From positions 553,244 through 617,243 of the forward strand of contig NGFI01000004.1 in the NCBI GenBank assembly GCA_002215645.1: a stretch of DNA of 64,000 nucleotides, in the 5' to 3' direction. The stretch is from Gemmatimonadetes bacterium 2013_60CM_65_52 (GTDB lineage: Bacteria; Gemmatimonadota; Gemmatimonadetes; Gemmatimonadales; Gemmatimonadaceae). The translations under genes and the position numbers were made by a program. The notes below the pieces were generated by a model, which ran no database searches, was not told where the DNA came from, and was given only the letters and a program-made list of their open reading frames with translations. This document shows, piece by piece, positions 39,895 through 55,781 of this stretch. Within the stretch, counting starts at the first letter, position 1, and the number at the start of each line of letters is the position of its first letter.

Positions 39895-42300
39895 TCAATG
39901 GAGGCGAACCCTGCGCGCCTTCTCTCGGCATGTCGGCGCCGCAGTGCGGGGCACGCTTACACCCTTTGCGTCCCAGGCAAAACGCGGAGTGGCCGCCGGG
40001 ATCATCCACTGCGCGCACCGCGGGCTCACCAGTTGAAAGCGTCCCGTGAGCACGCTCTCCGAGCTTCCGCCGGCGAAGACCCGAAACACGCCGGGCTCGA
40101 TGACGAGGTGCCCCGCATGATCCGTGAACGCAAGGTCGCGCGCGCCGAGCGCGAACGACATCGTGCGCATTCCACCGGCAGCAAGCGTGATGCGCTGGAA
40201 TCCGCGTAGCTCCTTCACAGGCCGCGTAAGACTCGCCACGACGTCCTGCACATAGAGCTGAACGACTTCGTCTCCTTCGCGCCCTCCGGTATTCGCAACG
40301 TCGACGGAGACGATGATCGAATCACGCGGATGCATGCGTGACGCGCTCAGTCGGAGATTGGAGTACGCGAATGTCGTGTAGCTCAGCCCATGGCCGAAGG
40401 GATACAGCGGTGTCCACGGCAGGTCGAGATACTTGGACGTGTACTTCTCGCTCGCGGTCGGCGGGCGTCCGGTGTTGCGATGGTTGTAGTAGATCGGCAC
40501 CTGTCCCGTCGCGCGCGGCACGCTCACGGGCAGCTTGCCACTCGGGCTCGCGTCGCCGAAGAGGAGATCGGCTACGGCGGTGCCCATCTCGGAGCCGAGG
40601 TACCACGTTTCCAGGATGGCGGGCACGTGCTCGGCTTCCCACGGAATTGCCAGCGGCCGTCCGTTCACGAGCACGAGGACGACCGGCTTGCCCACCGCAC
40701 TCACCCGCTTGATGAGCTCCTCCTGCATTCCAGGGAGCTCGATGCTGGCGCGGCTGCTCGCTTCCGCGCTCTGGTCTTCGCGCTCTCCGGCGACGATCAC
40801 GACCGCATCGGCGTCGCGCGCCGCTTCGACCGCGTGCTGAATGTCACTCGTGTCGCTGGTGACATCCGCGCCGCGGACGTAGGTCACCCCCCCGGAACCG
40901 GCCGCGCGGCGAATGCCGTCGAGCACGGTCACGGCTTCATTCGCGCGGCCCTCCGCCGCCCAGTTGCCGATCATGGATCGCGCGTCGGCCGCCAGAGCAC
41001 CGATGACGACGAGGCTTCCGACTGAGCGCGATAACGGCAGCACCGGAGTGCCGCCAATCGGCGCATTCTTCAGCAACACGGCCGACTCGCGCGCGAGCTG
41101 TCGCGACAGGGCGCGATGTGCCGGCGTGAGCTGTTGCGTCTTCTCTCGCGTGGTGTCGCAGAACCGATACGGATCGGAGAAGAGGCCGAGCGCGTACTTC
41201 GCGCGCAGAATGCGGCGCACCGCGTCGTCCACGTCGTTGAGGGGCACCACGCTGTCCCGAACGAGCCGCGGAAGCTCCGAGACGTAGATGCCGCTCACCA
41301 TGTCGACGTCCACGCCCGCGCGCAGTGCGAGCCGCGCCGCCTCGGCGGAGTCGGCGGCGACACCGTGCGGAATCAACTCCATCACGCCCGTGTAGTCGCT
41401 CACGAGCAGACCCTTCCACTTCCACTGACCGCGCAGGAGATCGTGGATCAAAGCGCGGTTGGCGTGCATGGGCACGCCCGCGATTTCGTTGAATGCCGCC
41501 ATCACCGACCACGTGCCCGCGACCGCGGCCGCGTGGAACGGAGGGAGATAGACGTCGCTCAACGTCGGCCGCGAGACCTCAGCCACGTTGTAGTCGCGGC
41601 CACCTTCGGCGGCGCCATAGGCGACGAAGTGTTTCGCCGTGGCGAGCATCACGTCGGATGGCACGAGTCGGGACGAGTCGGCCGGAGAGCCGTCGCCGCG
41701 AATCATGCCGGAGAGCTCCTGACCCTGAAACCCACGCACTTGGGCGGCGGCCATGGCCGCGCCGAGGTACGGATCCTCGCCCGCGCCTTCGACGACGCGT
41801 CCCCAGCGGGGGTCGCGCGCGATGTCCACCATCGGCGCGAAGGTCCAATGCAGCCCCGAGGCGGTTGCTTCGATGGCGCTGACGCGCGCCGCGCGCTGAA
41901 CCAGCGCGGGATCCCAGCTCGACGCGCTCGCAAGCGGCACGGGGAACATCGTCCGGAAGCCGTGAATGACGTCGCTGGCGAAAAGCAGGGGAATGTGCGA
42001 CCGCGACTCGTTCACGGCGATGCGTTGTAGACCGCACGTGTACGTCGCTCCAAAGACACTGAGAAACGAGCCGACGCGCCCGGCGCGGATGTCCGCCTCA
42101 CCGCCCTCCGGCACCAGTGGACCCGTCAATCCACTGTGGCCGCGATACTGCGCGAGCTGGCCGGCCTTCTCCTCCAAGGTCATCCGAGTGAGCACGGAAT
42201 CCGCAAAGCGCTCCGCACGCCGGTACTGCGTCTGCGCGTGCCCTACGAACGGGACCAGCAGAAGGATGATCGCGACGCAGCGAAGGCGCGCGTTCAACAC
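39895..42300 (-). CDS. bglX: GH3 beta-glucosidase, BglX-like
   Basis: 801 residues from GTG 42300, overlapping the glucanase stop by seven bases; an N-terminal signal peptide (IILLLVPFVGHAQ) marks it as periplasmic. GH3 barrel landmarks: KAGQLAQYRGH, DVIHGFRTMFPVPLA, RDPRWGRVVEGAGEDPYLGA, KHFVAYGAAEGGRDYN and the nucleophile loop LLVSDYTGVMEL. The C-terminal alpha/beta sandwich and fibronectin-III-like domain (PVKELRGFQRITLAAG) complete the protein. It removes terminal beta-glucosyl residues, here probably from oligosaccharides made by the neighbour. Confidence 0.92.
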   Translation of the reverse strand: MLNARLRCVAIILLLVPFVGHAQTQYRRAERFADSVLTRMTLEEKAGQLAQYRGHSGLTGPLVPEGGEADIRAGRVGSFLSVFGATYTCGLQRIAVNESRSHIPLLFASDVIHGFRTMFPVPLASASSWDPALVQRAARVSAIEATASGLHWTFAPMVDIARDPRWGRVVEGAGEDPYLGAAMAAAQVRGFQGQELSGMIRGDGSPADSSRLVPSDVMLATAKHFVAYGAAEGGRDYNVAEVSRPTLSDVYLPPFHAAAVAGTWSVMAAFNEIAGVPMHANRALIHDLLRGQWKWKGLLVSDYTGVMELIPHGVAADSAEAARLALRAGVDVDMVSGIYVSELPRLVRDSVVPLNDVDDAVRRILRAKYALGLFSDPYRFCDTTREKTQQLTPAHRALSRQLARESAVLLKNAPIGGTPVLPLSRSVGSLVVIGALAADARSMIGNWAAEGRANEAVTVLDGIRRAAGSGGVTYVRGADVTSDTSDIQHAVEAARDADAVVIVAGEREDQSAEASSRASIELPGMQEELIKRVSAVGKPVVLVLVNGRPLAIPWEAEHVPAILETWYLGSEMGTAVADLLFGDASPSGKLPVSVPRATGQVPIYYNHRNTGRPPTASEKYTSKYLDLPWTPLYPFGHGLSYTTFAYSNLRLSASRMHPRDSIIVSVDVANTGGREGDEVVQLYVQDVVASLTRPVKELRGFQRITLAAGGMRTMSFALGARDLAFTDHAGHLVIEPGVFRVFAGGSSESVLTGRFQLVSPRCAQWMIPAATPRFAWDAKGVSVPRTAAPTCREKARRVRLH

Positions 42301-43745
42301 CTGTTCTCGATCCAGCCGCCCGTGAAGCCGGCGCGACACAGGCCGCGAACGAGGTAGGGCTGCTTCTTCATCGCCTGCCATACGAGCTCCGTGCGATAGT
42401 TCTCGGCCATGCCGATGATGGGTCCCTGATCGATGCCGAGTTGATTGTCGTCGAACCAACCGGCGTCGGGATAGATGCGCCCGCGCCGCACGCGAATCGT
42501 CGTATCGCGCAGCGTAGGACTGAAGGAGTCGATGAATCCGTAACGATTGAATATCCGCTCGCCATACGTCTCGCGCATCGTGCGAAGTGCGCTGATCGTG
42601 ATGTCCGGAGCGAACGGGATCGAGCCGCCGGTGGCGGTGGGTGCAAGGGTGCCGTCGTCGCGGACGTCACCGAGCGCCGCGCCGCGCGCCCAATAGGTGT
42701 GCAGTCGCCAGGGAGTACCTTCGCGAGTCATCAAGGTATCCTTCGGCCCGTCTGCCGCCGTGAGCCCCCAGATGCGCTCGGAGTAGTCGCGGTAGTGAGA
42801 CGGATTCTCCGTTGCGTACGCGCGCTGCGACAGCGTGGCTCGGCGTGAATTCTCGAAGTAGTCGATGCCGCGCGCGCGCATGTATCCATCGCGGATTCCG
42901 CGAAAGTCCACCCACAGGTGGGAGTATTGATGTCCGAAGAGCGGAGCAAAGTTGACCATCGCGATGCCTTCGAACGTTCCCCACTGATACGTCTCGGTGA
43001 AGGCCGTCCACGCGGAGGCATCCATGGGATGCGTCGGCGATCCGAGTGCGAGCAGGTAGAGCAGCATCGCCTCGTCGTAGCCCTTGTATTCGCTGGTGCC
43101 GAAGCCGCGCTCCGGGCGCCACGACATCGTAACCCGGGAGGACGTCGCCTGCATCCATCTCCAATCAACGCGTCGGTACAGCGAGTCCGCGAGCGCTCGA
43201 ATTTCCGCCTCGGCCGGGTCGGCACGGTCGAAATACTGCTGGCAGAACAGCACGCCACCCATGAGCAGCGCCGTGTCGATGGTGGACAGCTCCGTGTTGC
43301 GATAGCGCTGGCCCGTCCTCATGTCGAGGAAATGGTAGAAGAAGCCATGATGGCCCGTGACACCGACCGAATCAGCACCCTGTGGCGCACGCCAGAAAAA
43401 GCGCAGCGTGGCGAGAACTCGCTGCGCCGCATCGGCGCGCGTCACGTACTGCCGCTCAATGCCCACAGGATACGCAGTAAGAGCGAACCCCACCGCCGCG
43501 ATGCTCGCGAATGGTGGATCCGGTGTTCGATCCGGCGTAAGACCATTTACCGGATTCGACGTTTCCCAGAACCAGTCGAAGGTGCGCCGCTGGAGCGTAT
43601 CGAGAAATGCCAGATTGGACGGGTCTCCAACCGCAGCGACCGTCGTATGATGACTTGCGGGGGCGGGCTTGAGTGCGGCACAGCCCGCGATCAAGCCCCC
43701 TGAGACCACGGCGACGCGGCGAAACACCATGCGAAGACGGGACAT
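42294..43745 (-). CDS. GH144-like endo-beta-1,2-glucanase (glucoamylase-like, PF10091)
   Basis: 483 residues. Signal ends in a lipobox IAGC. The alpha/alpha-barrel landmarks RRTFDWFWETSNPVNGL, HHGFFYHFLDMRTG, GYDEAMLLYLLALGS and GIDQGPIIGMAENYRT match the PF10091 'glucoamylase' family, whose characterised members include endo-beta-1,2-glucanases of GH144. The middle gene of the TonB-receptor locus; its start overlaps the receptor stop (TGATG). Substrate beta-1,2-glucan is an inference from the family and the beta-glucosidase partner. Confidence 0.85.
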   Translation of the reverse strand: MSRLRMVFRRVAVVSGGLIAGCAALKPAPASHHTTVAAVGDPSNLAFLDTLQRRTFDWFWETSNPVNGLTPDRTPDPPFASIAAVGFALTAYPVGIERQYVTRADAAQRVLATLRFFWRAPQGADSVGVTGHHGFFYHFLDMRTGQRYRNTELSTIDTALLMGGVLFCQQYFDRADPAEAEIRALADSLYRRVDWRWMQATSSRVTMSWRPERGFGTSEYKGYDEAMLLYLLALGSPTHPMDASAWTAFTETYQWGTFEGIAMVNFAPLFGHQYSHLWVDFRGIRDGYMRARGIDYFENSRRATLSQRAYATENPSHYRDYSERIWGLTAADGPKDTLMTREGTPWRLHTYWARGAALGDVRDDGTLAPTATGGSIPFAPDITISALRTMRETYGERIFNRYGFIDSFSPTLRDTTIRVRRGRIYPDAGWFDDNQLGIDQGPIIGMAENYRTELVWQAMKKQPYLVRGLCRAGFTGGWIENRC

Positions 43746-46700
43746 CAGAACCGGTAGTTGAGGCCGAGCTGGAAGCGTCTCGCGGCGCCCGGAATGGTCA
43801 AATCGGTGACGACGGAGCGCGCCGTGCCGAACGTGGGGTTTGACTTGATGCTGCCGTCCACGTTGAACGTACCGTAGTTCAGATCATAGCCGTTGAAGTT
43901 CACGTAGTTGAAGACGTTGAACATCTCGCCCACCACTCCCACGCGTTGGCCGCGGACGGTGGTGAAATCCTTCTCCAGGCGCAGGTCGACATTGCGGTAG
44001 CCCCAGTTGCCGATGCCGAGGAACGGCTTGCCGTCAGGCCGATACCAGTTGCGGTCCAGGCCATCGGGGTAATCGTTGCCCGACAGACAATCCTTGTTGC
44101 CGTGCGTGCACGAGTTGGTGCCCGGTCCGAATCCCACGGTGGCGTTGCCCGGCGTTGGAGAGCCGAGATCGATGATGCCGCCGAGCTTGAGATCGAGCGG
44201 AAGGCCCAACAGCCAACTCGCCGTGAGATGGTGTCGCTCGTCGTTTGCCGTCCGATAACGCGTAAAGTCACTCGTGGAAACGATGTTGAGCGCGCTGAAC
44301 ACGTCGCCCGCGCTCGCTTCCTCCGTGGCCTTGGCCAATGTGTACGAGAGCTGCATGCCCCAGTGTGAGTCGTCGCTGTAGCGTTTCTGCGCGGAGAGAT
44401 AGAGGGCGTCGTACCAGTTGCGCGCGTCGTCGCTCGACACGAACACGTTCGAGTACTTGCGCGTCGTCGTGGATGGAAACGCCGCGCAGCATGTGCCATT
44501 GGCATTCCGGTTTGCGCGAATCCACGTAAAGGTGTGGGAGCCGCGCACACCGGTGTAGCTCGCCGAGAGCAGCAGGTCGCCAATGGCCTGACGAACGCCG
44601 CCGCTGACCTGCCGCGCCATGGGCGGAATCATCTCGTTCTTCGTGAGGAAGAGCTCGGGCTGCGGAGCGTTGCCGCTGCGAAGGATTTCCTGCAAGCCCG
44701 CGGGCGTGAGATAGCGGTCCTCCCACTTGATCGTGGGATTGCCGTTCACGGGCGCACCGTTGGCCGAGAAACGGAACGTGTACTGCGTCCACCGCAGGTT
44801 GCCCATCTCATTCAGCGTATTGTTGTAGCGGTTGCGGTCGTAATACAAACCGAAACCGCCGAACAACACGGTCTGTCCCGTGCCGCGGACGTCGTAGGAA
44901 AATCCCACCCGCGGTTGAACGGCGCCCATGAACGGCTTCCGCTGACTGCCGTCGGTGAAGTAGGGCGATGGGTCGCAGAGCTGCTCGGTCTTGCGATTCG
45001 TTCCATCGCAGGCCAGGCCAGCACGATACGCCAGCACCGCGGCGCGCACCGAGTCGGGCGTGACCCAGTCGTTGTTGTTCATGTTGCTCTCGTAGTCCCA
45101 GCGGACGCCGAGATTGAGCGTCACGCGTGGCACGACACTCCAGTCGTCCTGCAGGAACAACCCTGCCTGCTTGTTACGGGCGCCAACGTCGGGATTGCCG
45201 AATCCCGCGACGGCCGAAGTGGGGAAGGCCCAGCTGTTCGTCGCATCGAACGTGTACTGCGGCACGCCACTCAGGTACTTGAGGATGGCGTACTCCAGCA
45301 GATCGACGTTCGCTCCGAGCTTGAAGAGATGGTCGCCGAGGAGACCAGGCAGCGCGTACGTGTAATCGTCGCGCAACGAAAGGCGGTTCTGATTGAAGTC
45401 CTGTCTCGTGCTGCGGCCGCCGATCTTCATCGCGCCGCTGTAGTTGAGGCCGACCTTGCCCTCGTACAGCGGGATGGGATTCCAGTGGTAGAGCTGATAG
45501 CTGACGCTGGCCTCGTTCAGTCCCGCGCCGCGCACGTACGTATGCCGCAGCGCATAGCTCGAGACCGTGTTGTAGAAGTATTCCGCGTTGTCGTAGCTGT
45601 TGGTTCCGCCGAAGCTGCGGACGTCGTACTCATGCCGGAGATTCGCGCTGAACTCGAGCCGATGGTTCTCGCCCGGCACGTAGGTGAGCTTGCCAAAGCC
45701 GAGATGTGAGCGGAATGGCGACTCGAACGTTCCCTCGAAACCGCGCAGGGAGTCGACGAGACGCTGCGGCATGGTGGCCGTGTTGCTGCCGAGCGTGACG
45801 TCGGCCGCACGCGTCTGCAGGTTCCCTTCGTAGGATCCAAAGAAGAACAGGCGATCGTGTATGAGCGGACCGCCGAGACTCCCGCCGAGCTGATATTTGT
45901 CGAGCCGGGGCTTCGGTGCGCACGGCGTCGCGGCGCCCGCCGCAGTCAGTGAGTCGCAGCGTCGCGCAGTGAAGTAGTCGCGCTCGATGGCATTCTTGTT
46001 CTGGAAGAAGCCGAAGGCGTCGCCGGACCAGGTGTTCGTTCCGGACCTGGTCGTCGCGGTAATGATCGCGCTCGTCGCCTTCTGATATTCGGCCTTGTAC
46101 TGCTGCGTGATGACGCGGAACTCCTGGACCGCGTTCTGCGGGAACGGATTGCCCTTGCTGGCGTCTTGTCCGACCGCGCCGCCGGTCAGCACGTCGTTCT
46201 TGAAGCTCGTGCCGTCGATGAAGACGTTGATGTTGTTCGCGCTCTGCGCGCCACTCGTGATGCTGCCGCCGTCGCGCTTCACGCCAGGCGCGAGCAGCGC
46301 GAGGGCGAGAAAATTGCGGTCCGGCAGCGGCGTGTTCTCGATCTGGTCGCGCGTGATGTTGGTGGAGAGCTCTGGCGTGCGACGCTCGACGAGCTGTTGC
46401 GCCGAGCGTGCAGACACGTTCACTCCGGACAACTGCGCGGCGACCCCGAGAAGCGTGAAGTCGATGCTGAGCGACTGCCCAACGAGTGCGCGCACAACCC
46501 GGCGGGTTGGCGCGAAGCCGATCCGGTTCACCGTCAGCTCGTACTCGTCGGGCGCGAGGCCGGGCAGGACGTAGAATCCGCGCGCGGAAGTTCGGACGCT
46601 GCGGCGCGCATTGGTGCTGGTGGCGCGTGCGGTCACGGTCGCGTCGGCAACCGCAGCTCCCGCGTCCGTGGACACCGTTCCCGTCATGCTGGCGGTGGTG

Positions 46701-46804
46701 GTCTGCGCCGCGGCGGAATCGGGGCGCAAGGGAACAAGAATGACACCGAGCACGGCGGCGGCGCAGGCGGTGCGCCGCCGCAGGTTAAACGTTGAAGCAA
46801 TCAT
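43745..46804 (-). CDS. TonB-dependent receptor with N-terminal carboxypeptidase-like domain (Oar type)
   Basis: 1019 residues from ATG 46804; the frame extends to 46930 but the extra part has no signal peptide. Signal peptide ends around DSAAAQ, then a CarboxypepD_reg-like beta domain (TGTVSTDAGAAVADATVTARA), a plug domain (QNAVQEFRVITQQYKAEYQ) and the outer-membrane barrel, ending ARRFQLGLNYRF with the terminal Phe typical of barrels. In the same locus as two glycosidases, it probably imports their oligosaccharide substrate. Confidence 0.9.
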   Translation of the reverse strand: MIASTFNLRRRTACAAAVLGVILVPLRPDSAAAQTTTASMTGTVSTDAGAAVADATVTARATSTNARRSVRTSARGFYVLPGLAPDEYELTVNRIGFAPTRRVVRALVGQSLSIDFTLLGVAAQLSGVNVSARSAQQLVERRTPELSTNITRDQIENTPLPDRNFLALALLAPGVKRDGGSITSGAQSANNINVFIDGTSFKNDVLTGGAVGQDASKGNPFPQNAVQEFRVITQQYKAEYQKATSAIITATTRSGTNTWSGDAFGFFQNKNAIERDYFTARRCDSLTAAGAATPCAPKPRLDKYQLGGSLGGPLIHDRLFFFGSYEGNLQTRAADVTLGSNTATMPQRLVDSLRGFEGTFESPFRSHLGFGKLTYVPGENHRLEFSANLRHEYDVRSFGGTNSYDNAEYFYNTVSSYALRHTYVRGAGLNEASVSYQLYHWNPIPLYEGKVGLNYSGAMKIGGRSTRQDFNQNRLSLRDDYTYALPGLLGDHLFKLGANVDLLEYAILKYLSGVPQYTFDATNSWAFPTSAVAGFGNPDVGARNKQAGLFLQDDWSVVPRVTLNLGVRWDYESNMNNNDWVTPDSVRAAVLAYRAGLACDGTNRKTEQLCDPSPYFTDGSQRKPFMGAVQPRVGFSYDVRGTGQTVLFGGFGLYYDRNRYNNTLNEMGNLRWTQYTFRFSANGAPVNGNPTIKWEDRYLTPAGLQEILRSGNAPQPELFLTKNEMIPPMARQVSGGVRQAIGDLLLSASYTGVRGSHTFTWIRANRNANGTCCAAFPSTTTRKYSNVFVSSDDARNWYDALYLSAQKRYSDDSHWGMQLSYTLAKATEEASAGDVFSALNIVSTSDFTRYRTANDERHHLTASWLLGLPLDLKLGGIIDLGSPTPGNATVGFGPGTNSCTHGNKDCLSGNDYPDGLDRNWYRPDGKPFLGIGNWGYRNVDLRLEKDFTTVRGQRVGVVGEMFNVFNYVNFNGYDLNYGTFNVDGSIKSNPTFGTARSVVTDLTIPGAARRFQLGLNYRF

Positions 46805-46936
46805 TGGGGAAAACACTGGTGGGGAGGGCAGGCGAGCCCAGCAGCACGATCGGCACGGAAACGTGCGCGGGATTAGTTCGGGATCGAGACTATTGTCGGG
46901 CGAAGCGGTACGCAAGTGTTTCTGACACACCTCGCG

Positions 46937-47542
46937 CTATCGCTCCACAGCCTCCAGCCGCCGCTTCGCGATCCCGATCGGCACGATCGTCACTGCCACG
47001 CACAACACCGCCGCAAGGCCGAATCCAACGATCATCTCCGTGGGATCGGTCCGCGTATTGTAGAGGCGCGCCGAGAGATATCCGTACACCGGGCGCGCCT
47101 CGAGCGTGATCACACCCGCGATGAGGCCGACGGACGCGATCATGAACAGCAGCCCGCCGAACGACGTCGGAATCTGCGCCGCATTCTCCGTCTCGAACTG
47201 CGGAAACAGCGTCCCGAACCCGAGCGCCAACCCACACAGCGCCAGCGTCATCATGGTGATCGTCATGACGCTCACCGCGAACATGAAGTCGCTCACCTGC
47301 AGGAGCGCGTTCGTCACGCCGACGATCCCCAGGGCGAGCACGAGCAACGGAAGCGTCCCCACCCAGAACTTCGCCCACAGCAGATCCTTCACCGGCATCG
47401 GGCTCGACCTCAGGAGCCACAGCGTCCGGCCTTCGAGCGAGACACTCGGAAAGATGAATCGTGCCGCGATCGAGGCGAGCACGAACCCGGCAAGCACCAG
47501 GTTCAGGAACGGAATCACGTTGACGAGGGAGAATGCTCCCAA
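46937..47542 (-). pseudogene. Detached 3' copy of the ABC-2 permease gene
   Basis: 201 codons, in frame to the last codon, that correspond to the C-terminal 200 residues of the complete permease at 51762-53462 (shared motifs GFVLASIAARF, FPSVSLEGRTLWLL, GTLFPQFETENAAQ, EARPVYGYLSA). It has no 5' part, no ribosome-binding site and only a TTG to start. It is as GC-rich as the host genes, whereas the same region of the complete gene is AT-richer. I infer it is the original permease end, displaced by an insertion. Confidence 0.8.
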
Positions 47543-47748
47543 AACCCTTTTCCTCCCTTCTTGCTGAGGTCCGGTCTGCGAGAAGGGCAGGCCACCTTCG
47601 CGACCTGTGCCACGTCGAGCTGACCCTCATGCGGCGGGTCTGCATTGGGAGCCCGTCATTGGACAAGCAGTCGGAAGGCGAAAACCTTACATTTCGGATT
47701 CAACTGCCGAGCAGGTTGCTCGATAGCAGCACTGGCTTAAGGGCGCCG

Positions 47749-48699
47749 ATGGATTTACTGACAAACGCAATCGAATCGATTCAGGTGGGCGTGGAGGACT
47801 ACCAAGTGGGCAGCCGTCCCCGCCTAATCTCCGCCGTGCGTAACGTCTACGCTGGAATCCTGTTGCTCTACAAAGAAGCCCTGTTACGTCATTCTCCCGA
47901 GGGGAGCGGCGAAGTCCTGATAAAAGCCAAAATCGCCACGGTAATGGGCTCGACAGGTGAGCTGAAGTTTGTCGGGCACGGCAAGAAGACCGTAGACACG
48001 CAGCAGATTCGAGAACGATTCAAGGACTTGGGAATCGTGACAGACTGGAGTGCATTGAACGCAATCGCTAGCGTGCGTAACGATGTCGAGCATTACTACG
48101 CTGACATCACGAAGGACAGTGTACGCAGTGCAATTGCATCGGCGTTCTTGATCATTCGGACGTTTATCGTCACCGAACTTGAGGAAGACCCGCCGAAGCT
48201 GGTCGGGAGCGCAACCTGGCAGTTGATGTTGGCGGAAAACGAGCTGTACGCCGAAGAGCGCCGGCTATGCAACGAGGCGTTTTCAGTCGTTGAATGGACA
48301 TCAGAAACCCTACGTCAGGGCATTCCGAAACTCAGGTGCTCCAAGTGCGGCTCAGATCTGATGTGCCCGTCGGACGATTGGGCCGATCTTGCCGACGCCA
48401 CACTGGCCTGCCGGGCATGCGGCACCGAGGTCGAGGCCCATCACTTCGTGCCGAAAGCGTTGGATCAAGAACTGGAATGGGAGCGGTATTTGGCGGCTTC
48501 GGACGGAGCCGACGAACCCGTTGGCGAGTGTCCGAACTGCGGCGTCGAGTCTTACGTGTTCGCCGAGGGACAGTGCGCGCTTTGCGGTGAGTCGGCTCAG
48601 ACTGATTGTGCGCGCTGCGGACAGACCATTCCGGCGAGTGAGTTCGGATCTTCTCCGGTTTGCGGTTACTGCGACTACCTGGGGTCGAAGGACGACTGA
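47749..48699 (+). CDS. HEPN-motif protein with three C-terminal zinc ribbons
   Basis: 316 residues from ATG 47749 (AAGGG upstream). The helical N-terminal half ends in VRNDVEHYY, an R-x4-H (Arg110, His115) motif of HEPN ribonucleases. The C-terminal third has six CxxC-type pairs: Cys197/200, 221/224, 261/264, 276/279, 287/290 and 305/308, i.e. three zinc ribbons that could bind nucleic acid or a protein. The frame reaches upstream to 47533 but the added part has no HEPN features. Defence association is inferred from motif and neighbours. Confidence 0.7.
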   Translation: MDLLTNAIESIQVGVEDYQVGSRPRLISAVRNVYAGILLLYKEALLRHSPEGSGEVLIKAKIATVMGSTGELKFVGHGKKTVDTQQIRERFKDLGIVTDWSALNAIASVRNDVEHYYADITKDSVRSAIASAFLIIRTFIVTELEEDPPKLVGSATWQLMLAENELYAEERRLCNEAFSVVEWTSETLRQGIPKLRCSKCGSDLMCPSDDWADLADATLACRACGTEVEAHHFVPKALDQELEWERYLAASDGADEPVGECPNCGVESYVFAEGQCALCGESAQTDCARCGQTIPASEFGSSPVCGYCDYLGSKDD

Positions 48700-48707
48700 A
48701 ATCGCAG

Positions 48708-48745
48708 CTCCGACGTCCACCTCCGACGTCCACTCCGACGTCCAC
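48708..48745 (+). repeat. Three tandem 12-13 base repeats
   Basis: CTCCGACGTCCAC occurs three times head to tail (48708-48720, 48721-48733, 48733-48745, the last two sharing one base). It lies in the gap between the HEPN and AIPR genes, immediately after the HEPN stop. It could bind a regulator or be slippage; it is not a CRISPR. Confidence 0.6.
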
Positions 48746-48965
48746 CGTGTTGACGGACTCGTCAGAAGTCATTAGGATGAACTTGCCTCAGTCAGCACTC
48801 TCGGCGCGAATGCGTTGGAGCCTGCGCTGTAGGTCGTAGCGGCGGCGGCCATTGTGGCTCGCTTGCCAGGAACAGTCGGTTCGGGGACCGGCGCACCGCG
48901 CGCCTGTCCCTGATCCCGATCAACAGGCGGCAGCCATTTGGGGTCTGCTTGCCAACGGAGATTCT

Positions 48966-50147
48966 ATGCACCAGCTTCGCTTTCCGGCGCAGCAGTTTCG
49001 CGCCATGCCCGCACCGAGTGGACGAGCTCGAGTGGGGCTTTTTTATTGCCCGGCATCGGCGATCCCATCCGAGCTGATGGACTGGCGGGATGTGAACCCG
49101 CGCGAGGTAAACCCGCGCAGCGCCACGTACAAGGCGATCGTCAGCACGCTCATGGAGGAGCCCGAGCGCTTCCACGAGCGGAATCGCGGCATCACCGTGG
49201 TGGCCAAGGACGTCACGTTCGATGAGAAGCGGCAGGAGGTTGTGATCAGCCTCGCGGACAAGACACAGCACGGTGTGGTTGACGGCTCGCACACGCTACA
49301 CGCGATCTTGGAAGGTCAGAAACTCATGTCAGACGAGCCCTGGCCGGCGCATGTCTTCATCATTGCCAAGACCGGCATCGATCCGGAGCAGATCGCCGAA
49401 GTCGCCGGTGGCCTGAACACGAGCCAGCAGGTCGATCTCAAGAGTCTCGAGAACCTGCGCGAGCACTTCAAGGGATTGCAGGATGCGATCAAAGGTGAGC
49501 CGTACCACGACCAGATCGCGTACAAGATGAACGAGGTAAAGCCGGTAGACGTCCGCGAAATCCTATACTACCTCGCTGTGTTTGACGCGGAGACGTACAA
49601 CGGTAACCGCCATCCCGTCGCGCTCTTTGGACGTAAAGAGGGAATCGTCCGTGAGTTCGCACGCCAGGCCGAGGAGCCGTCCAGAACGGACCCATTCCCG
49701 ATCCTAATCTCCAAGGCGCCGGACATCCTTCGACTCCGTGATCTGATCGAGAAGGCAGCGTTAGCACAGCAGAACGTCGGTCGCTACAAGGCGAGCAAGA
49801 AGACGCGCATCCGCAGCGAGTCGAATCGTGAGAATACGTTGTACTTCCTCAACGAGAAAACGAACGGGAAGATTCCCCTCGGCTGGATCATGCCGATGCT
49901 CGCCGCGTTCCGTGCCAACGTGGTATGGAACAAGCCGAAGGGGACGTTTACCTGGATCGTCCCAATTGAGGAGTTGGTCGACATGTCGATCGAACGCCTC
50001 GTCGGCGGTATCCTTGAGGTTCACGAGCAAGAGAACAGCCGCCCAGAATTTGTAGGTCGTAATTCTATCGCGTGGCGCATGAGCTACACCACGGTCTCGC
50101 AGTCCATTCTCGAGTGGCAGCTCAAGCGCGAGCGCAAGCGATCGTAG
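48966..50147 (+). CDS. AIPR-family protein (abortive infection phage resistance)
   Basis: 393 residues from ATG 48966 with GGAG upstream. The AIPR pattern is visible in FHERNRGITVVAKDV (residues 69-83) and VVDGSHTLHAI (104-114), the equivalent of the family's N-G-x-Q-T loop; the rest is alpha/beta. AIPR proteins were named from an abortive-infection protein and recur in phage-defence islands, but their activity is not settled. The AIPR assignment is mine from motif pattern, without a search. Confidence 0.7.
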   Translation: MHQLRFPAQQFRAMPAPSGRARVGLFYCPASAIPSELMDWRDVNPREVNPRSATYKAIVSTLMEEPERFHERNRGITVVAKDVTFDEKRQEVVISLADKTQHGVVDGSHTLHAILEGQKLMSDEPWPAHVFIIAKTGIDPEQIAEVAGGLNTSQQVDLKSLENLREHFKGLQDAIKGEPYHDQIAYKMNEVKPVDVREILYYLAVFDAETYNGNRHPVALFGRKEGIVREFARQAEEPSRTDPFPILISKAPDILRLRDLIEKAALAQQNVGRYKASKKTRIRSESNRENTLYFLNEKTNGKIPLGWIMPMLAAFRANVVWNKPKGTFTWIVPIEELVDMSIERLVGGILEVHEQENSRPEFVGRNSIAWRMSYTTVSQSILEWQLKRERKRS

Positions 50148-50158
50148 TGTCAGCCCTG

Positions 50159-50189
50159 GCTGGCGTGGCTCTCACGGGGCCACGCCAGC
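50159..50189 (+). terminator. Hairpin after the AIPR gene
   Basis: Eleven-base stem GCTGGCGTGGC / GCCACGCCAGC (50159-50169, 50179-50189) with a nine-base loop, 12 bases beyond the AIPR stop. There is no T-tract, so it may act as a terminator or an mRNA 3'-end stabiliser. Confidence 0.45.
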
Positions 50190-50331
50190 GCTCCAGTGCG
50201 CAGCGTCGACAAATGCGCCCGAATATAGACGAGCGCTGCGGCCAAACACTTCCGGGGGGCGGATGTTCTCCCGTTGGCCATTACCCAATTCGTGAAATGT
50301 ATTCTGCTCAGGCATCTGCCCGATCCCTCCC

Positions 50332-51120
50332 TTGATTGACAACAACCTGACGGATACCGCTTCAGACGAAGTTACGGAGATCGCGGCAATAAGCGCCTTC
50401 GTGGGGACGATGCGGAGCGTAACAGTTCCGCTAGTGGGAAACGCGCAAACTATGCCCCGAAAGTCAAAATTGGGTTCGGGCGTCCTCCTTCAGCGCGGAC
50501 AGGATTTTCTGTTGCTTACCGTGCAACACCTGTTCAGGAGCGATGCTCAGTGGAGTTTCGAAACTGGCATAACTCACAATCGAGAATCGCTAAACATATC
50601 AATTCGCGATCTTCGCGCGCTCAAGAAACGCGACCTGAAATCTGGGGCGATGCAAGAGATTGATCTCGCGTGGGGCTGGCTCCGCCGAACGGACATGGTC
50701 GAAGGGCTGCAGTCGTTGCCAGACCCGAAACCGAAAATGATTCTTCCTGTGTATGACGGTCCGCTCGATACGGCGGTGATGGAAGACGAGCAGTACGGCT
50801 ATGCCGCGAACAACCGAATAAAATGGAATCCGCAAAGTCGTGAACTAATGCGAGAGCCGTCTTTCGAGGTAGGAATGACGCTCCGTAGCCGTCACGAAAG
50901 CGATGGTACGGTCGAGTTTGAACTCGCGCGAGATCATCAAGGCAACGAGTACTACAATGGTGCATCGGGTGCACCAATCGCAGATAGAAGCGGAAGGATT
51001 GTAGCACTTCTCGTCGGTTCGGCGCCGGGTAACGTCATTATCGGCGTCGAGCTGAGTCAATTCAGCGCACTCTTTGACCTGGATCCACCGCAGTCGCCAC
51101 CTTCCGCTAGCGCCGCCTGA
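50332..51120 (+). CDS. Trypsin-like serine protease
   Basis: 262 residues from a TTG start; no ribosome-binding site is obvious and a GTG at 50400 is an alternative. The chymotrypsin-fold triad is readable: His66 in LLTVQHLF, Asp111 in EIDLAW and Ser212 in GASGAP, so the protease should be active. The segment LGSGVLLQRGQDFLLL is the first beta-barrel strand pair. No signal peptide, so intracellular. It lies in the same orientation as the HEPN and AIPR genes. Its 3' end converges on the XRE gene. Confidence 0.78.
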   Translation: MIDNNLTDTASDEVTEIAAISAFVGTMRSVTVPLVGNAQTMPRKSKLGSGVLLQRGQDFLLLTVQHLFRSDAQWSFETGITHNRESLNISIRDLRALKKRDLKSGAMQEIDLAWGWLRRTDMVEGLQSLPDPKPKMILPVYDGPLDTAVMEDEQYGYAANNRIKWNPQSRELMREPSFEVGMTLRSRHESDGTVEFELARDHQGNEYYNGASGAPIADRSGRIVALLVGSAPGNVIIGVELSQFSALFDLDPPQSPPSASAA

Positions 51121-51188
51121 GTCTTGCGATGGACGTCGATGGTTCTTAGCTGAACGGCCGTGTGCATGCGGAACCGTTGGCGATTGAA

Positions 51189-51380
51189 CTACTCGCCAAT
51201 GCTTACGAAGTACGCCAGCGGCTTGTTGTAGATACGCGCAAATTGAAGCGCCTCGATAATGTCAACACGCCGCTCTCCAGATTCGCACTTCGAGACAAAC
51301 GACTGTGGCTTTCTGAGCGCAGCCGCAGCTTCTGTCTGCGTCAGTCCAGACTGTCGGCGCGCCTTCCTAAGACGCTGCAA
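51189..51380 (-). CDS. XRE-type helix-turn-helix protein
   Basis: 63 residues. The Cro/C1 helix-turn-helix is clear: LRKARRQSGLTQTEAAAALRKPQSFVSKCESGERRVDIIEALQFAR. The only listed start is a TTG (51380); the frame continues upstream to a stop at 51411-51413 through AQYIAENISF with no ATG or GTG, so a rare start is possible. The palindrome at 51464-51479 lies just upstream and is its likely operator. Confidence 0.75.
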   Translation of the reverse strand: MQRLRKARRQSGLTQTEAAAALRKPQSFVSKCESGERRVDIIEALQFARIYNKPLAYFVSIGE

Positions 51381-51463
51381 GAAGCTGATATTCTCTGCTA
51401 TGTATTGAGCTCAAGGTTCGGCGCGCCAATAGGTAGGGCAGGACCTTGCGCCGGGAGATCAAG

Positions 51464-51479
51464 TATCCCAAATGGGATA
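51464..51479. promoter_or_regulatory. Palindromic operator TATCCC-N4-GGGATA
   Basis: Perfect inverted repeat TATCCC AAAT GGGATA between the divergent XRE gene (51380) and the small ORF starting at 51498. XRE repressors of toxin-antitoxin and phage-type systems, such as HipB (TATCC-N8-GGATA), bind closely similar sites, so autoregulation by the XRE protein is likely. Spacing here is six bases between TATCC and GGATA. Confidence 0.65.
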
Positions 51480-51497
51480 TCATTTTCTCAATAGCAC

Positions 51498-51710
51498 ATG
51501 CGCAAGCTTAGAGATGGCTGTGACAAGAGCAGGGAGCGCGTGAGCGAGCTACTCTTTTCGCCTGAAGTACTCGCGGCCGCAGAGGCCGTGCGCCTTGAGC
51601 AGAAGGATGAGTATCAGTCCACCAGGCGTGAGCTTCTATACAAGCAGCCGTTGTTCGAAGCGCTTCTGCGCGAAGCGGCTGAATTGAGTCGAAAGCGCGA
51701 GGGCAGATAG
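51498..51710 (+). CDS. Small helical protein of unknown function
   Basis: 70 residues, highly charged, one long helix (VSELLFSPEVLAAAEAVRLEQ, ALLREAAELSRKREGR). It begins 18 bases after the operator, possibly on a leaderless transcript since no ribosome-binding site is seen. A toxin, antitoxin or accessory role is possible, but I recognise no family. Confidence 0.4.
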   Translation: MRKLRDGCDKSRERVSELLFSPEVLAAAEAVRLEQKDEYQSTRRELLYKQPLFEALLREAAELSRKREGR

Positions 51711-51748
51711 GGTTGCACAGCGCCGGATGGCGTTCAATTGAGCAACCC
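51710..51748. terminator. Hairpin between the small ORF and the permease 3' end
   Basis: Arms GGGTTGC (51710-51716) and GCAACCC (51742-51748) around a 25-base loop that can itself fold (CGCC-GGAT-GGCG). It sits between convergent genes and close to the island's right side, so it may be a bidirectional terminator. A 25-base loop makes this tentative. Confidence 0.35.
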
Positions 51749-51761
51749 GCTGCGCGCGCTA

Positions 51762-53462
51762 TCAGCGCTCGACTTCCTCAAGGCGCCGCCGAGCGATGGA
51801 AATGGGAATGACAGTGGTAACGATGCACAACAGCGCTGCCAAACTGAAGCCAACAACCATATCCGTCATGTCTGTCGCAGTTCCGTAGAATTGCGCAGAG
51901 AGATACCCGTACACGGGTCGTGCTTCGAGTATTAACACTCCGGCGATAAGGGAAATCGCCGCGATCATGTACAAGAGTCCCCCGAATGATGTCGGAATTT
52001 GCGCAGCGTTTTCCGTCTCGAACTGCGGAAATAGTGTTCCGAATCCCAACGCGAGACCACAGAGTGCCAGCGTCATCAGCGCAATTGTCATGATCGAAAC
52101 CGCGAACATGAAATCGCTCACCTGAAGGAGCACGTTCGTCACGCCGATAATCCCGAGCGCCAAGATCAATAGGGGTAGAGTCCCAACCCAATACTTGGCC
52201 CAAAGCAAGTCAGGCACCGGCATAGGGCTGGACTTGAGCAGCCAAAGGGTCCGTCCCTCAAGGGAAACGCTCGGGAAAACGAACCGCGCGGCGATCGATG
52301 CGAGCACGAAGCCCGCCAATAACATGTTGGCGAACGGGACCGTATTTCGGAGAAAGAACGTGACGCCCTCGCCGCGCAGCGGCAGATACTTGATGTTGAA
52401 CACGTACACGATGACGAGCACGGCGAGCAGGATGAGCTGCGACCACTGCGTCGTGTCCCGAAAGAAGAGGCGAAGCTCCTTGAGGATCAGCTCCCGGCGA
52501 AGCACGCCCAATGGCGCCAACAACCGGTAGGCCGCGCGCCCCATCCGCGAGCTCCTCGCCCAGCGCTGCGCGCTCTCCTGCGCCTTGCTGAATCCATCCA
52601 GGTACAGCGCGCGATGCACGAGCGCACCGAGGACGAACGCGGCCGCGGCCGTGCTCCAGAGCAGGTAGATCGGCAGATAGTCCGGCCGGTTGTCGAGCCA
52701 GCCGAGCACCGCGCGCTGCACCCACTCGCTTGGCATGAACGGCGACGTCGGCGTCCGCAGCACCGTCACGAAGTCCACGAGCGAACGAAATCCTTCAGGG
52801 CGGGCGAGACGCTCGGGCCGCACGACGCGAAAGAGCAACACGATGCCGCCCGCGGCCAGCACCGCGATGACGCTCAGAATGTCGCGCGTGCGTCGCGCCG
52901 GAAACACGTTCACGAGGATGAGCGTGATCGCGCTGCCGATGACCGCCGGCACCAGGAGAAACGGCAGAAACACGGTGGCGACGAGCACGGGAAACGCGAA
53001 TCCGCCGTGATATGCCACGCCGAACGCGGCAAACATCGGCACCGACATGAGCACCACCATCCAGCTCGATGCCACCGCCGTCTCGAGCAGTTTCGCGGCG
53101 TACAGCGTCAGCCAATCCACTGGCCCGGCGACGAGCAGGTCCAGATCGCGCGCGAGAAAGAAGCTCGACAGCGCGGTGATGATGTTCGAGAGCAGCAGGA
53201 TCGAGAAAAACCCGATGAGAATGACGCCAAGCAGCTTGCCCGCCAGAAATGGACCGAGGTCGGGCACGTTGCGGAAATACACGAGCAACCGGTAGAGCAC
53301 GGCGTAGATGAATGCCCAGAAGCCGAAACCGATGATGCCCAGAATCGTGAAACGCGCCCCGCGTCCACGCTGACCGGCCAGCGTGCGCGCGCGCGCCGTG
53401 AGCCACTTCGGTAGCAGGACGAAACCGAGCGACGGATCGGGACGCGACTCGGCGTCAGGCAT
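51762..53462 (-). CDS. ABC-2 type permease, chimeric 3' end
   Basis: 566 residues from ATG 53462, overlapping the ATPase stop by eight bases. About a dozen membrane segments. Residues from the RNTVPFANMLLAGF segment to the C-terminus correspond to the detached copy at 46937-47542, but with synonymous changes throughout and lower GC; bases before about 52345 differ in composition from bases after. The upstream part matches neighbouring genes. The protein is intact. It works with the adjacent ATPase; substrate unknown. Confidence 0.85.
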   Translation of the reverse strand: MPDAESRPDPSLGFVLLPKWLTARARTLAGQRGRGARFTILGIIGFGFWAFIYAVLYRLLVYFRNVPDLGPFLAGKLLGVILIGFFSILLLSNIITALSSFFLARDLDLLVAGPVDWLTLYAAKLLETAVASSWMVVLMSVPMFAAFGVAYHGGFAFPVLVATVFLPFLLVPAVIGSAITLILVNVFPARRTRDILSVIAVLAAGGIVLLFRVVRPERLARPEGFRSLVDFVTVLRTPTSPFMPSEWVQRAVLGWLDNRPDYLPIYLLWSTAAAAFVLGALVHRALYLDGFSKAQESAQRWARSSRMGRAAYRLLAPLGVLRRELILKELRLFFRDTTQWSQLILLAVLVIVYVFNIKYLPLRGEGVTFFLRNTVPFANMLLAGFVLASIAARFVFPSVSLEGRTLWLLKSSPMPVPDLLWAKYWVGTLPLLILALGIIGVTNVLLQVSDFMFAVSIMTIALMTLALCGLALGFGTLFPQFETENAAQIPTSFGGLLYMIAAISLIAGVLILEARPVYGYLSAQFYGTATDMTDMVVGFSLAALLCIVTTVIPISIARRRLEEVER

Positions 53463-54213
53463 CCAGAACCTCGACCAGCTCGCGCGCGGCGTTCTCGCCA
53501 GTGAGTCGCAGGAAGATCTGCTCGAGTCCCTCCGTGCCGTGCTCTGCGGTTTCGCGAAGCTCCGGGATCGTGCCGGCCGCGCGAATGCGCCCCTTCGCAA
53601 TGATGGCGACGCGATCGCACAGACTCTCCGCCACCTCGAGCGTATGCGTGGACATCATGATCGTGTGACCGCGCCGCGTGTACTCGCGGAAAAGGTCCTT
53701 CAGAATGCGGGCCGCCTTCGGATCCAGACCGACCATGGGCTCGTCCACCACGATCACTTCGGGTCGGTGCACGAAGGCACTCGAGATGATGAGCTTCTGC
53801 CGCATCCCGTGGCTGTAGCTCTCCACCAGCTCGTCGCGCCAATCCTCGAGGTCGAACAGAGCCATCAATTCCCGCGCGCGATGCTCCACCTCGTCGCCCT
53901 GCTGCTCGTACAGCCCCGCTACGAACCGGAGAAACTCGGCGCCGGTGAGCTTCTCATATATGAATGGCCGGTCCGGAATGAATCCGAGCCGCATCTTTGC
54001 TCCGATCGGATCGGTGGCCAGGTCCACGCCCGCAATGGAGATGCTCCCGGCCGTTGGCTTGAGGATGCCCGCGATCATTCGCAGCGTCGTCGTCTTGCCG
54101 GCGCCGTTCGGCCCGAGGAAGCCGAACAGCTGGCCGCGCGGCACCTCGAGGTCGATGGAGTCGACCGCCGTGAACGTGCCGTATCGCTTGGTGAGGCTCC
54201 GCAGGTTGATCAT
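53455..54213 (-). CDS. ABC transporter ATP-binding protein
   Basis: 252 residues from ATG 54213 (MINLRSLTKRYGTF); the frame runs further upstream without ABC features. Walker A GPNGAGKTTT, Q-loop region, signature SYSHGMRQK (a variant of LSGGQ common in ABC-2 exporters), Walker B VIVVDEP and switch STHTLE are all visible. Powers the ABC-2 permease encoded just downstream. It follows the transglutaminase gene by five bases. Confidence 0.93.
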   Translation of the reverse strand: MINLRSLTKRYGTFTAVDSIDLEVPRGQLFGFLGPNGAGKTTTLRMIAGILKPTAGSISIAGVDLATDPIGAKMRLGFIPDRPFIYEKLTGAEFLRFVAGLYEQQGDEVEHRARELMALFDLEDWRDELVESYSHGMRQKLIISSAFVHRPEVIVVDEPMVGLDPKAARILKDLFREYTRRGHTIMMSTHTLEVAESLCDRVAIIAKGRIRAAGTIPELRETAEHGTEGLEQIFLRLTGENAARELVEVLDA

Positions 54214-54218
54214 CGGTG

Positions 54219-55781
54219 TCAGCGTGAAGACAAAACGGTGATGTGCAAGGCACCCATGAGTCGCACCAGCTCGACCTGCTTGTTCAGCCCGCCGACCACG
54301 AAGCGAATGTGAGACGCATCGGCCGGGAATTGTCCGAACGTCGGATCGACGGCCACCCATCGCTCGAGCCAGATCTCGGGCCACGCGTGGTAGTAGAACT
54401 TGCCCTCCACATACGCGAGGCCCGCGGCGACGCGCGCTGGAATGCCCGCGGCACGAGCCAACGCCACGAACAACTGTGAATGCTCGTTGCAGTCACCCAC
54501 GCGTGATCGCAGCGTACCCACGGCGCTCGGCACGCCGACCGTGACTCGCTTTGCGAGGGAGTCGTAGAGCCAGGTATTGATGCGTTGCGCAACGACACGT
54601 GGATCCGTGTCTGTTCCTCGAAGACGTGTCGCCAGCGCGACGATGGAGGGATCATTCACTTCCAGGAGCGGCTCCGCGTCGAGATAGACGCTCATCACCG
54701 TGGCGCGTGCGCCGTTCGGAAGCACGTATGCCGCCTTGAGCGACGACGGCTCCTCGCGCGTGACCGTCAGCGTGTCGCCTCGCAGGCGCTGGCGATATCC
54801 CTTGACGTCGAATCCCGCGAGATCCACGCCGTCGAGGCGCATGACGAGCTGCTGAAGATTTTCGCGCAACGTCTTATTTGCGCTGAGCGCAGTCGTCTCG
54901 TAGATGTCGCGGTCCGCAGACACCGCGGTGCCGCGCCGCAGTGCATCGGTTTTCCAGTTCTCGAAGGCCACCTCGTACGGCCGGCGCTCGAGCGTGAGAC
55001 CGAGAACCTGTGTCGCCCGGACGACGCGTCCCTGCTCGTCCACCCACCCGGAAAACCCGGCGGACGCGTTCCCCTCGGAGCCGAGCTTCCACGCGCGTAC
55101 CGTGTCCGGCAGGGCGCCGCGCCATCGCGAAGACGCGGCATCGAACACGCTGCTGTCCTGCACCACGAAGATGCTTTCCGCTTCGACGCGCACGCGTGCG
55201 TCCTTCGTGCTCATACTCGCAAGATCGAATACGGGAAGCGTGTACGTCTTTCCAACCTTCGGCCGCTCACCCAGAGCCACCGCGAGCGGAACGAGCGTCG
55301 GCAGCAGCATCGGGCCTGACAGATGTACGCGTTGCGTATCCGGCGCCACGCCGCCTGTGCCGCCGATCGCCAGCAGCAGCAGTGTGTCGCCGAGCACCTT
55401 TCCGGACGCTCTCAGCGGAGAGAGATCCGCGTCGACGTCGGCGGTAAAGCTCGTGACGCGCAGCGCGCGGGTGAGGTGCACGGCGATTCGCGCGCTCGCG
55501 CGATGGATCTTCCCTGCCACCGGCAGGTCGGCGACGAGGTAGTCCTGAATGTTGATGGTTGAGCCGGCCGTATCGATCGTCGTGGACGCGAAGCCGATCT
55601 GCTCGCCTTTCTGGAGAACGGCGTAAAATGTCGCGCCGGGCGTAACGCGAAGACCCGCCTCGGCCAGTTGCTCGGTATGTGGCCGGAAGAGTTCGCGCTG
55701 AAGGAGGACGCCAAGTCCGCCGAGCCAGAACACCAGGATGCCGACGGCCCACAGGATGCGCCGGTCCGGGAGGCGCGTCAC
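54219..55781 (-). CDS. Exported transglutaminase-like protein
   Basis: 520 residues. One N-terminal membrane segment (ILWAVGILVFWLGGLGVLL) anchors a large periplasmic part. The transglutaminase/protease-like triad is Cys431 (GDCNEHSQLF), His465 (YYHAWPEIW) and Asp479 (VAVDPTFGQFPAD), all intact. The 300-residue N-terminal region is beta-rich without a known domain. It sits directly upstream of an ABC-2 transporter and downstream of a TPR gene. Confidence 0.87.
   Translation of the reverse strand: MTRLPDRRILWAVGILVFWLGGLGVLLQRELFRPHTEQLAEAGLRVTPGATFYAVLQKGEQIGFASTTIDTAGSTINIQDYLVADLPVAGKIHRASARIAVHLTRALRVTSFTADVDADLSPLRASGKVLGDTLLLLAIGGTGGVAPDTQRVHLSGPMLLPTLVPLAVALGERPKVGKTYTLPVFDLASMSTKDARVRVEAESIFVVQDSSVFDAASSRWRGALPDTVRAWKLGSEGNASAGFSGWVDEQGRVVRATQVLGLTLERRPYEVAFENWKTDALRRGTAVSADRDIYETTALSANKTLRENLQQLVMRLDGVDLAGFDVKGYRQRLRGDTLTVTREEPSSLKAAYVLPNGARATVMSVYLDAEPLLEVNDPSIVALATRLRGTDTDPRVVAQRINTWLYDSLAKRVTVGVPSAVGTLRSRVGDCNEHSQLFVALARAAGIPARVAAGLAYVEGKFYYHAWPEIWLERWVAVDPTFGQFPADASHIRFVVGGLNKQVELVRLMGALHITVLSSR

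What the first reader, a model, noticed from the sequence alone, without database searches (positions are those of the whole stretch)
46937..52350. Gene cluster inside a duplicated, chimeric ABC permease gene
The last 201 codons of the permease gene exist twice in the same orientation: intact 3' end of the complete gene (51762-52365) and a detached copy (46937-47542). The detached copy is host-like in GC, whereas the complete gene turns AT-richer exactly in that region. Between them lie genes unlike the neighbours. This reads as an insertion that carried its own permease 3' end and so restored the gene, leaving the original end stranded beside the TonB-receptor operon.
Basis: partly seen in the sequence, partly recalled or inferred. 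Interest (0 to 1): 0.8.

Follow-up and report, generated by a model that had tools for sequence, protein, structure and literature searches.

The report
Defence-gene insert carrying replacement permease end
In an uncultured Gemmatimonadota bacterium, a 4-kb block of probable anti-phage genes has landed inside a transporter gene but brought its own copy of the last third of that gene, so the transporter stays whole while the original gene end is left behind as a fragment; a related species has the same kind of insert at the same spot with different cargo.

Summary
The last ~199 codons of an ABC-permease gene (PF16949) exist twice in the same orientation, at 46937-47537 and 51762-52361 (79% aa, 73% DNA). 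Seven same-genus genomes have one uninterrupted gene. The detached end has normal host composition and divergence, and genes that follow the intact permease in relatives lie beyond it. The complete gene switches from host-like to AT-rich, diverged sequence at codon ~415, exactly where the detached copy begins; a change-point test blind to the detached copy found codon 416. The acquired end shares its composition with the genes between the copies: AIPR, a PADLOC candidate (PDC-S64), a trypsin-like protein and a small XRE regulator. A second genome of the genus has an insert at the same codon with unrelated cargo (ParA, TIR-like effector) plus a related XRE gene. A third genome of the family has a detached end at codon ~508. 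No integrase domain was found in either sequenced insert. This is a gene-end-restoring insertion, like e14 in icd, but small, defence-loaded, integrase-less and carrying an unusually long gene end. Whether an outside site-specific recombinase or single-crossover homologous recombination made it is open.

The parts
52362..53462 (-). 5' part of the permease gene (PF16949 ABC_tran_2), host-like; the start is uncertain (ORF opens at 53600 but overlaps the ATPase gene)
   Evidence: Pfam E 1.2e-111 over the whole protein; genus-like identity and GC3 0.86 up to codon 413
51762..52358 (-). acquired 3' end of the complete permease gene, codon 415 to stop, AT-rich and diverged
   Evidence: GC3 0.67, 4-fold differences 0.60-0.72 to the genus; blind change point at codon 416; inside the genus in the tree but on a long branch
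52352..52382 (-). junction between host 5' part and acquired 3' part (attL-like): GTCACGTTCTTTCTC^CGAAATACGG in gene sense
   Evidence: codon alignment with seven same-genus genes
46937..47537 (-). detached original 3' end of the permease gene, frame intact
   Evidence: genus-like identity along its whole length, GC3 0.88; 83-88% aa to same-genus permeases
47525..47545 (-). junction between cargo and detached 3' end (attR-like): GGGAGCATTCTCCCTCGTCAACG in gene sense
   Evidence: homology to intact genes begins at codon 413-415 here, and at the same codon in G001
47749..48699 (+). zinc-ribbon protein, PADLOC candidate defence family PDC-S64 (ORF open from 47533; ATG at 47749 matches homologues)
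   Evidence: PADLOC E 2.3e-47; found in 4 of 177 family genomes
48966..50147 (+). AIPR (abortive infection phage resistance) family protein
   Evidence: Pfam PF10592 E 1.2e-21, 78 bits against cut-off 25; only one other of 60 genomes has a relative, at a different locus
50332..51120 (+). trypsin-like protein (weak)
   Evidence: Pfam Trypsin_2 E 0.0016, below the curated cut-off
51189..51380 (-). small XRE-family helix-turn-helix protein; the only gene shared with the G001 insert
   Evidence: Pfam HTH_3 1.5e-9; 47-53% aa to the G001 insert's HTH, E 1.5e-11; 10 of 177 family genomes, in the genus only in the two insert carriers
51498..51710 (+). 70-aa ORF, no relatives found
   Evidence: no PADLOC/PHROG hit, no convincing tblastn hit in related loci

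Best explanation
A ~4.8-kb DNA element (4.2 kb of probable anti-phage cargo plus ~600 bp of permease 3' end) inserted conservatively between codons 414 and 415 of a core ABC-permease gene. Because the element carried an in-frame permease 3' end at one border, the host gene was regenerated as a chimera (host 5' two thirds, element 3' third), and the host's own 3' end was displaced to the far side of the cargo. Shown: two copies, coincident junctions, host-like detached end, cargo-like end in the complete gene, uninterrupted alleles in relatives, and a second insert at the same codon with other cargo. Inferred: the insertion is site-specific, by a recombinase supplied in trans or since lost, because both inserts join at the same few nucleotides without deletion. 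Also inferred: the carried gene end keeps the insert harmless and so selectable for its defence cargo.
For: Intact single-copy genes in seven same-genus genomes. Detached start and the blind change point in the complete gene coincide at codon ~415. The detached end is host-like in GC3 and synonymous divergence, and the acquired end resembles the cargo. Genes that follow the intact permease in G003, G009, G018 and other relatives lie beyond the detached copy in the window. G001 carries an insert with its detached end starting at the same codon, cargo unrelated except for an XRE gene. Detached copies in both genomes still show normal protein-level constraint (first/second-position differences 0.09-0.15 with 4-fold 0.42-0.56), so each detachment is recent and not inherited from a common ancestor. 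The native site reads TCACGTT-10 bp-AACGTGA, a perfect 7-bp inverted repeat, in the window genome. No comparable gene-end copy near 713 other genes.
Against: No integrase, resolvase or transposase domain in six-frame scans of either cargo. No identical core of useful length shared by the two junctions, and the cargo-side arm resemblance is not significant (p 0.03-0.25). The inverted repeat is not conserved in all same-genus genes. G122 has a detached end starting at a different codon, ~508. No free element, phage, plasmid or viral contig carries the gene end. In G001 the two ends are nearly identical next to the junction and diverged further on, which points to homologous exchange.
Confidence: 0.55

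Rival explanations
1. Same acquisition, but by homologous recombination: donor DNA from a related species, holding the permease 3' end followed by defence genes, circularised and integrated by a single crossover in the permease (or recombined on one side and joined illegitimately on the other). The shared gene end is duplicated and no recombinase is needed.
For: No integrase in either insert. The acquired end comes from within the genus. G122's breakpoint differs. G001's copies are a mosaic (p 0.019 near the junction, 0.138 further on). Experimental precedent: single crossovers of circularised partially homologous DNA in E. coli left gene-end duplications of 109-950 bp (PMC3240628).
Against: A crossover should fall anywhere in the shared 600 bp and leave the start of the detached copy donor-derived; in the window both switches lie within a few codons of the very start of homology and the detached copy is host-like from its first codons. 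Two recent inserts joined at the same ~3 nt are unexpected.
Confidence: 0.33
2. The complete gene is wholly native and fast-evolving at its end; the detached copy and the cargo are what came in.
For: In the 3' protein tree the complete gene's end groups with G001, G005 and G009 as the 5' part does, while the detached copy branches just outside them.
Against: DNA support for these placements is weak (28-69% bootstrap), and the detached copy's distances and composition are those of the 5' part while the complete gene's end is off in both. It gives no reason for a switch at codon 415 of the complete gene. Synteny resumes on the detached copy's side.
Confidence: 0.07
3. Old tandem duplication of the gene end in place, with later gain of genes between the copies and drift of one copy.
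For: The direct-repeat arrangement alone.
Against: No two-copy arrangement in seven other genus members. A non-coding copy kept since before genus divergence should have decayed, but the detached copy is constrained, and it is the functional copy that is AT-shifted and diverged.
Confidence: 0.03
4. Assembly artefact joining two strains' permease loci.
For: The window comes from a draft genome in 14 contigs; in some other MAGs, such as G453, extra copies are strain overlap.
Against: Both junctions lie inside a 623-kb contig, and G001, a separate assembly, shows its cargo, detached end and part of the second copy on one contig with the same breakpoint.
Confidence: 0.02

Closest known systems
Gene-restoring prophages (e14 in icd, Gifsy-1 in lepA, Phi297 in yecE of enteric bacteria; PMC4632033)
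   Same: Insertion inside a protein-coding gene with gene function retained; as I recall, the element carries an alternative gene end and the displaced host end lies at the far border.
   Different: Those are prophages, normally with their own integrase; here ~4.2 kb of cargo, no integrase or phage structural genes found, and a carried end of ~600 bp (a third of the gene), longer than the e14/phage 21 icd segment as I recall it.
Single-crossover integrants with gene-end duplication, related to homology-facilitated illegitimate recombination (PMC3240628)
   Same: Foreign DNA flanked by a partial duplication of the target gene's end, 109-950 bp in the experiment; no recombinase gene needed.
   Different: Here both copies switch origin at the very border of homology, and two genomes share that border.
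Core defence hotspots of Pseudomonas aeruginosa (cDHS1/2; PMC10250203)
   Same: Defence genes of changing identity at one conserved chromosomal place, often with no recognisable mobility gene; spread by flanking homology proposed.
   Different: cDHS lie between core genes and are large (cDHS1 median 26 kb); here the site is inside a core gene, the insert is ~4 kb, and it is occupied in 2 of the 9 same-genus genomes in which the gene was found.
SCC elements in rlmH of staphylococci (own knowledge)
   Same: Site in the 3' end of a core gene, gene preserved, variable defence/resistance cargo.
   Different: SCC carry ccr serine recombinases and preserve only a few terminal codons.

Membership tests
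Gene-restoring integrative element (e14/icd type) | inserted within a coding sequence, host end displaced beyond the cargo | tested here: met
Gene-restoring integrative element (e14/icd type) | element carries an in-frame gene end that restores the reading frame | tested here: met
   intact 612-aa ORF, cargo-like last 198 codons under purifying constraint
Gene-restoring integrative element (e14/icd type) | independent elements use the same site | tested here: inconclusive
   window and G001 join at the same codon; G122 joins at codon ~508
Gene-restoring integrative element (e14/icd type) | encodes a tyrosine or serine integrase | tested here: not met
   six-frame Pfam scans of both cargos
Gene-restoring integrative element (e14/icd type) | identical core sequence at both junctions | tested here: inconclusive
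   only TTCT..CTC shared; arm motif p 0.03-0.25
Gene-restoring integrative element (e14/icd type) | excises as a circle | not testable with these tools
   no reads; no free form in phage, plasmid or viral collections
Homology-facilitated illegitimate recombination | recipient DNA deleted at the illegitimate joint | tested here: not met
   no permease codon is missing between the two host parts
Single-crossover integration of circularised DNA | gene-end duplication flanking the insert | tested here: met
Single-crossover integration of circularised DNA | start of the detached copy is donor-derived | tested here: not met
   window detached copy is host-like from its first codons; G001 cannot be told
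AIPR family (PF10592) | profile match above curated cut-off | tested here: met
   78 bits against 25; anti-phage activity not tested
ABC_tran_2 permease (PF16949) | profile match above curated cut-off, ABC ATPase gene adjacent | tested here: met
   375 bits against 25.7; ATPase at 53455-54384
PDC-S64 candidate defence gene | PADLOC profile match | tested here: met
   E 2.3e-47; the family itself is only a candidate

The most novel reading that the evidence does not exclude
A family of small, integrase-less defence islets in Gemmatimonadaceae targets a fixed point in a core permease gene, carries the last third of that gene as a passport that keeps insertion harmless, and moves by a recombinase supplied in trans or by host recombination between the ~600-bp gene-end repeats, with cargo exchanged between genomes.
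Probability: 0.3. Interest if true: 0.65.

Novelty: new variant of a known kind. Interest (0 to 1): 0.45.

Why it matters
Defence genes often sit in islands with no visible mobility gene, and how such islands move is an open question. Here the junctions are still readable: the insert, the displaced host end, the replacement end and the empty site in relatives can all be aligned to the codon. That gives a testable case of integrase-less defence-gene acquisition at a protein-coding site, and a signature (a detached core-gene end next to AT-rich cargo) that can be searched for in other genomes.

Tried and rejected
Search for a mobile carrier of the permease end in viral contigs, phages and plasmids: nothing. 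Six-frame search for a hidden integrase in both inserts: none. Shared attP arm (AAAGGGTTTT) beside both detached copies: not significant. The XRE gene as a marker of one site-specific element family: in other genera it sits beside other defence-like genes at unrelated loci, so it reads as a companion of defence islets, not of this site. The 70-aa ORF as shared backbone: no homology. Contig breaks near codons 380-455 in G386, G320, G292 and G314 as further insertions: G320 is plain assembly overlap (100%), G386 is an 82% overlap of uncertain meaning, the rest uninformative. G453: collinear strain copy. G046: 3' part only, near a CutA-type gene on an otherwise continuous contig, probably a deletion; not pursued. 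Origin of the acquired end outside the genus: not supported by the tree.
Full report
Observation. The window belongs to a Gemmatimonadaceae-type genome (4.2 Mb, 14 contigs; the window lies in a 623-kb contig; related records are named Gemmatimonadaceae/Gemmatimonadetes). A permease gene of Pfam family PF16949 (ORF 51762-53600 on the minus strand, 375 bits) is complete, and its last ~199 codons occur again at 46937-47537 in the same orientation (79-80% aa; 73% DNA). Among 713 other genes of at least 200 aa in 1.26 Mb of the window and related loci, none has such a detached C-terminal copy nearby.

Which copy is the original. Seven same-genus genomes (G002-G005, G007-G009) have one uninterrupted gene. 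Codon alignment with them shows three things. The complete gene is genus-like up to codon 413 (4-fold differences 0.43-0.49, GC3 0.86). From codon 415 it is diverged and AT-rich (4-fold 0.60-0.72, GC3 0.67). The detached copy is genus-like over its whole length (4-fold 0.42-0.51, GC3 0.88). A change-point search that used only the complete gene and the relatives placed the divergence switch at codon 416 (best range 409-420; not reached in 300 permutations; no comparable switch in seven control genes). The detached copy starts at codon 413-415. The acquired end matches the cargo in composition (GC3 0.67 against 0.56-0.77), not the host genes around it (0.78-0.88). Genes that follow the intact permease in relatives lie beyond the detached copy in the window, from about 39.7 kb in G003 and 35.7-37.3 kb in G003, G009, G001 and G018. 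So the detached copy is the original end and the end now used by the complete gene was acquired. One point goes the other way. In the protein tree the acquired end falls inside the genus with G001/G005/G009, and the detached copy just outside them. The DNA trees give little support to these placements, and the acquired end has a long branch (0.47 against 0.18 for the 5' part). The donor is therefore a relative within the genus or an element that took its gene end from one.

Detachment is recent. The detached copy keeps an open frame, and its first/second-position differences (0.09-0.12) relative to 4-fold differences (0.42-0.51) are those of the intact gene (0.11-0.15 with 0.43-0.49). The acquired end shows the same kind of constraint, so it has been a working gene end.

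Cargo. Between the copies lie a zinc-ribbon protein matching the PADLOC candidate PDC-S64 (E 2e-47), an AIPR protein (E 1e-21), a weak trypsin-like protein, a small XRE regulator and a 70-aa ORF without relatives. These genes are rare among relatives: PDC-S64 in 4 of 177 genomes, AIPR in 2 of 60 including the window's own genome, the XRE gene in 10 of 177. Six-frame Pfam scans found no integrase, resolvase or transposase.

A second insert at the same codon. G001, another genome of the genus, has on one contig a detached end (L034 7275-7874), ~4.4 kb of cargo and the end of a second copy up to the contig edge; the rest of the complete gene starts another contig. Its detached copy begins at the same codon as in the window, within about 3 nt. 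Its cargo is different: ParA-like, TIR-like effector (PADLOC E 7e-10) and a 136-aa protein, again without an integrase. The only shared gene is the XRE regulator, in the same place and orientation (47-53% aa, E 1.5e-11); in the genus it is found only in these two genomes. The two acquired ends are not each other's closest relatives (69% DNA). In G001 the two ends are 98% alike over codons 415-452 but 86% over codons 510-612, which suggests exchange between the copies.

A third case. G122, another genus of the family, has a complete permease and a detached end starting at codon ~508, 87% identical to its complete gene's end, abutting AT-rich DNA (GC 0.52-0.61 against about 0.65). So at least three genomes have a detached permease end, out of 149 (of 179 in the family) in which the end was found, but not all at one codon.

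Mechanism. Acquisition of foreign DNA together with a replacement gene end is well supported (I put it near 0.88). The recombination step is inferred. For a site-specific step: the switch in the complete gene and the start of the detached copy coincide, no host codon is lost, the detached copy is host-like from its first codons, and two recent inserts with unrelated cargo share the joint. In the window genome the native site is TCACGTT-10 bp-AACGTGA, a perfect inverted repeat, though not conserved in all relatives. Against it: no recombinase, no clear common core, a different joint in G122, and no free element in phage, plasmid or viral collections. The main rival is single-crossover integration of donor DNA, for which there is a direct precedent: in E. 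coli, circularised molecules with a partial gene end integrated and left gene-end duplications of 109-950 bp (PMC3240628). That rival predicts a donor-derived start of the detached copy, which the window does not show.

Comparison with the known. Prophages that keep their target gene working, such as e14 in icd and Gifsy-1 in lepA (PMC4632033), do the same thing to the gene. The present inserts differ in carrying no integrase, in being about 4 kb and defence-loaded, and in carrying a third of the gene. P. aeruginosa core defence hotspots (PMC10250203) share the changing defence cargo and the frequent absence of mobility genes; spread by flanking homology is proposed there. I therefore call it a new variant of a known kind: it works like a gene-restoring element, but it fails the integrase criterion of that class, so it is not filed as a member.

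Limits. Most relatives are draft metagenome-assembled genomes; no reads were available; the genus has ten genomes here. Defence function rests on family assignments only.

Noticed in passing
window 39895-46930: A ~7-kb block (glycoside-hydrolase-like ORF, PF10091 glycoamylase-like protein, TonB-dependent receptor) lies between the detached permease end and the point where synteny with relatives resumes; relatives have only ~0.7-2 kb there, so it may be a separate acquisition.
   Followed up: partly
L034 7275-12655 and L035 1-1361 (G001): Second insert at the same permease codon with ParA-like and TIR-like genes; the two gene ends are nearly identical beside the junction and 14% diverged further on.
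   Followed up: yes
L122 8599-8988 / L139 (G122): Detached permease end starting at codon ~508 beside AT-rich DNA with a 603-aa ORF; its complete gene is on another contig, so the arrangement between the copies is not visible.
   Followed up: partly
L036 ~9250-9830 (G046): Only the last ~190 codons of the permease are present, fused to an unrelated upstream ORF near a CutA-type gene; the ATPase and 5' part appear to be missing. The homology starts close to the same codon as the inserts.
   Followed up: no
L158 5489-7586, L156 730-4195, L159 6630-8047, L162 2509-3851: Relatives of the small XRE gene sit beside KAP-NTPase-like, large-ATPase and other defence-like genes at unrelated loci in other Gemmatimonadaceae, with no obvious integrase nearby.
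   Followed up: partly
L164 1434-9715 (G349): Two PDC-S64-like genes about 7 kb apart in one contig.
   Followed up: no
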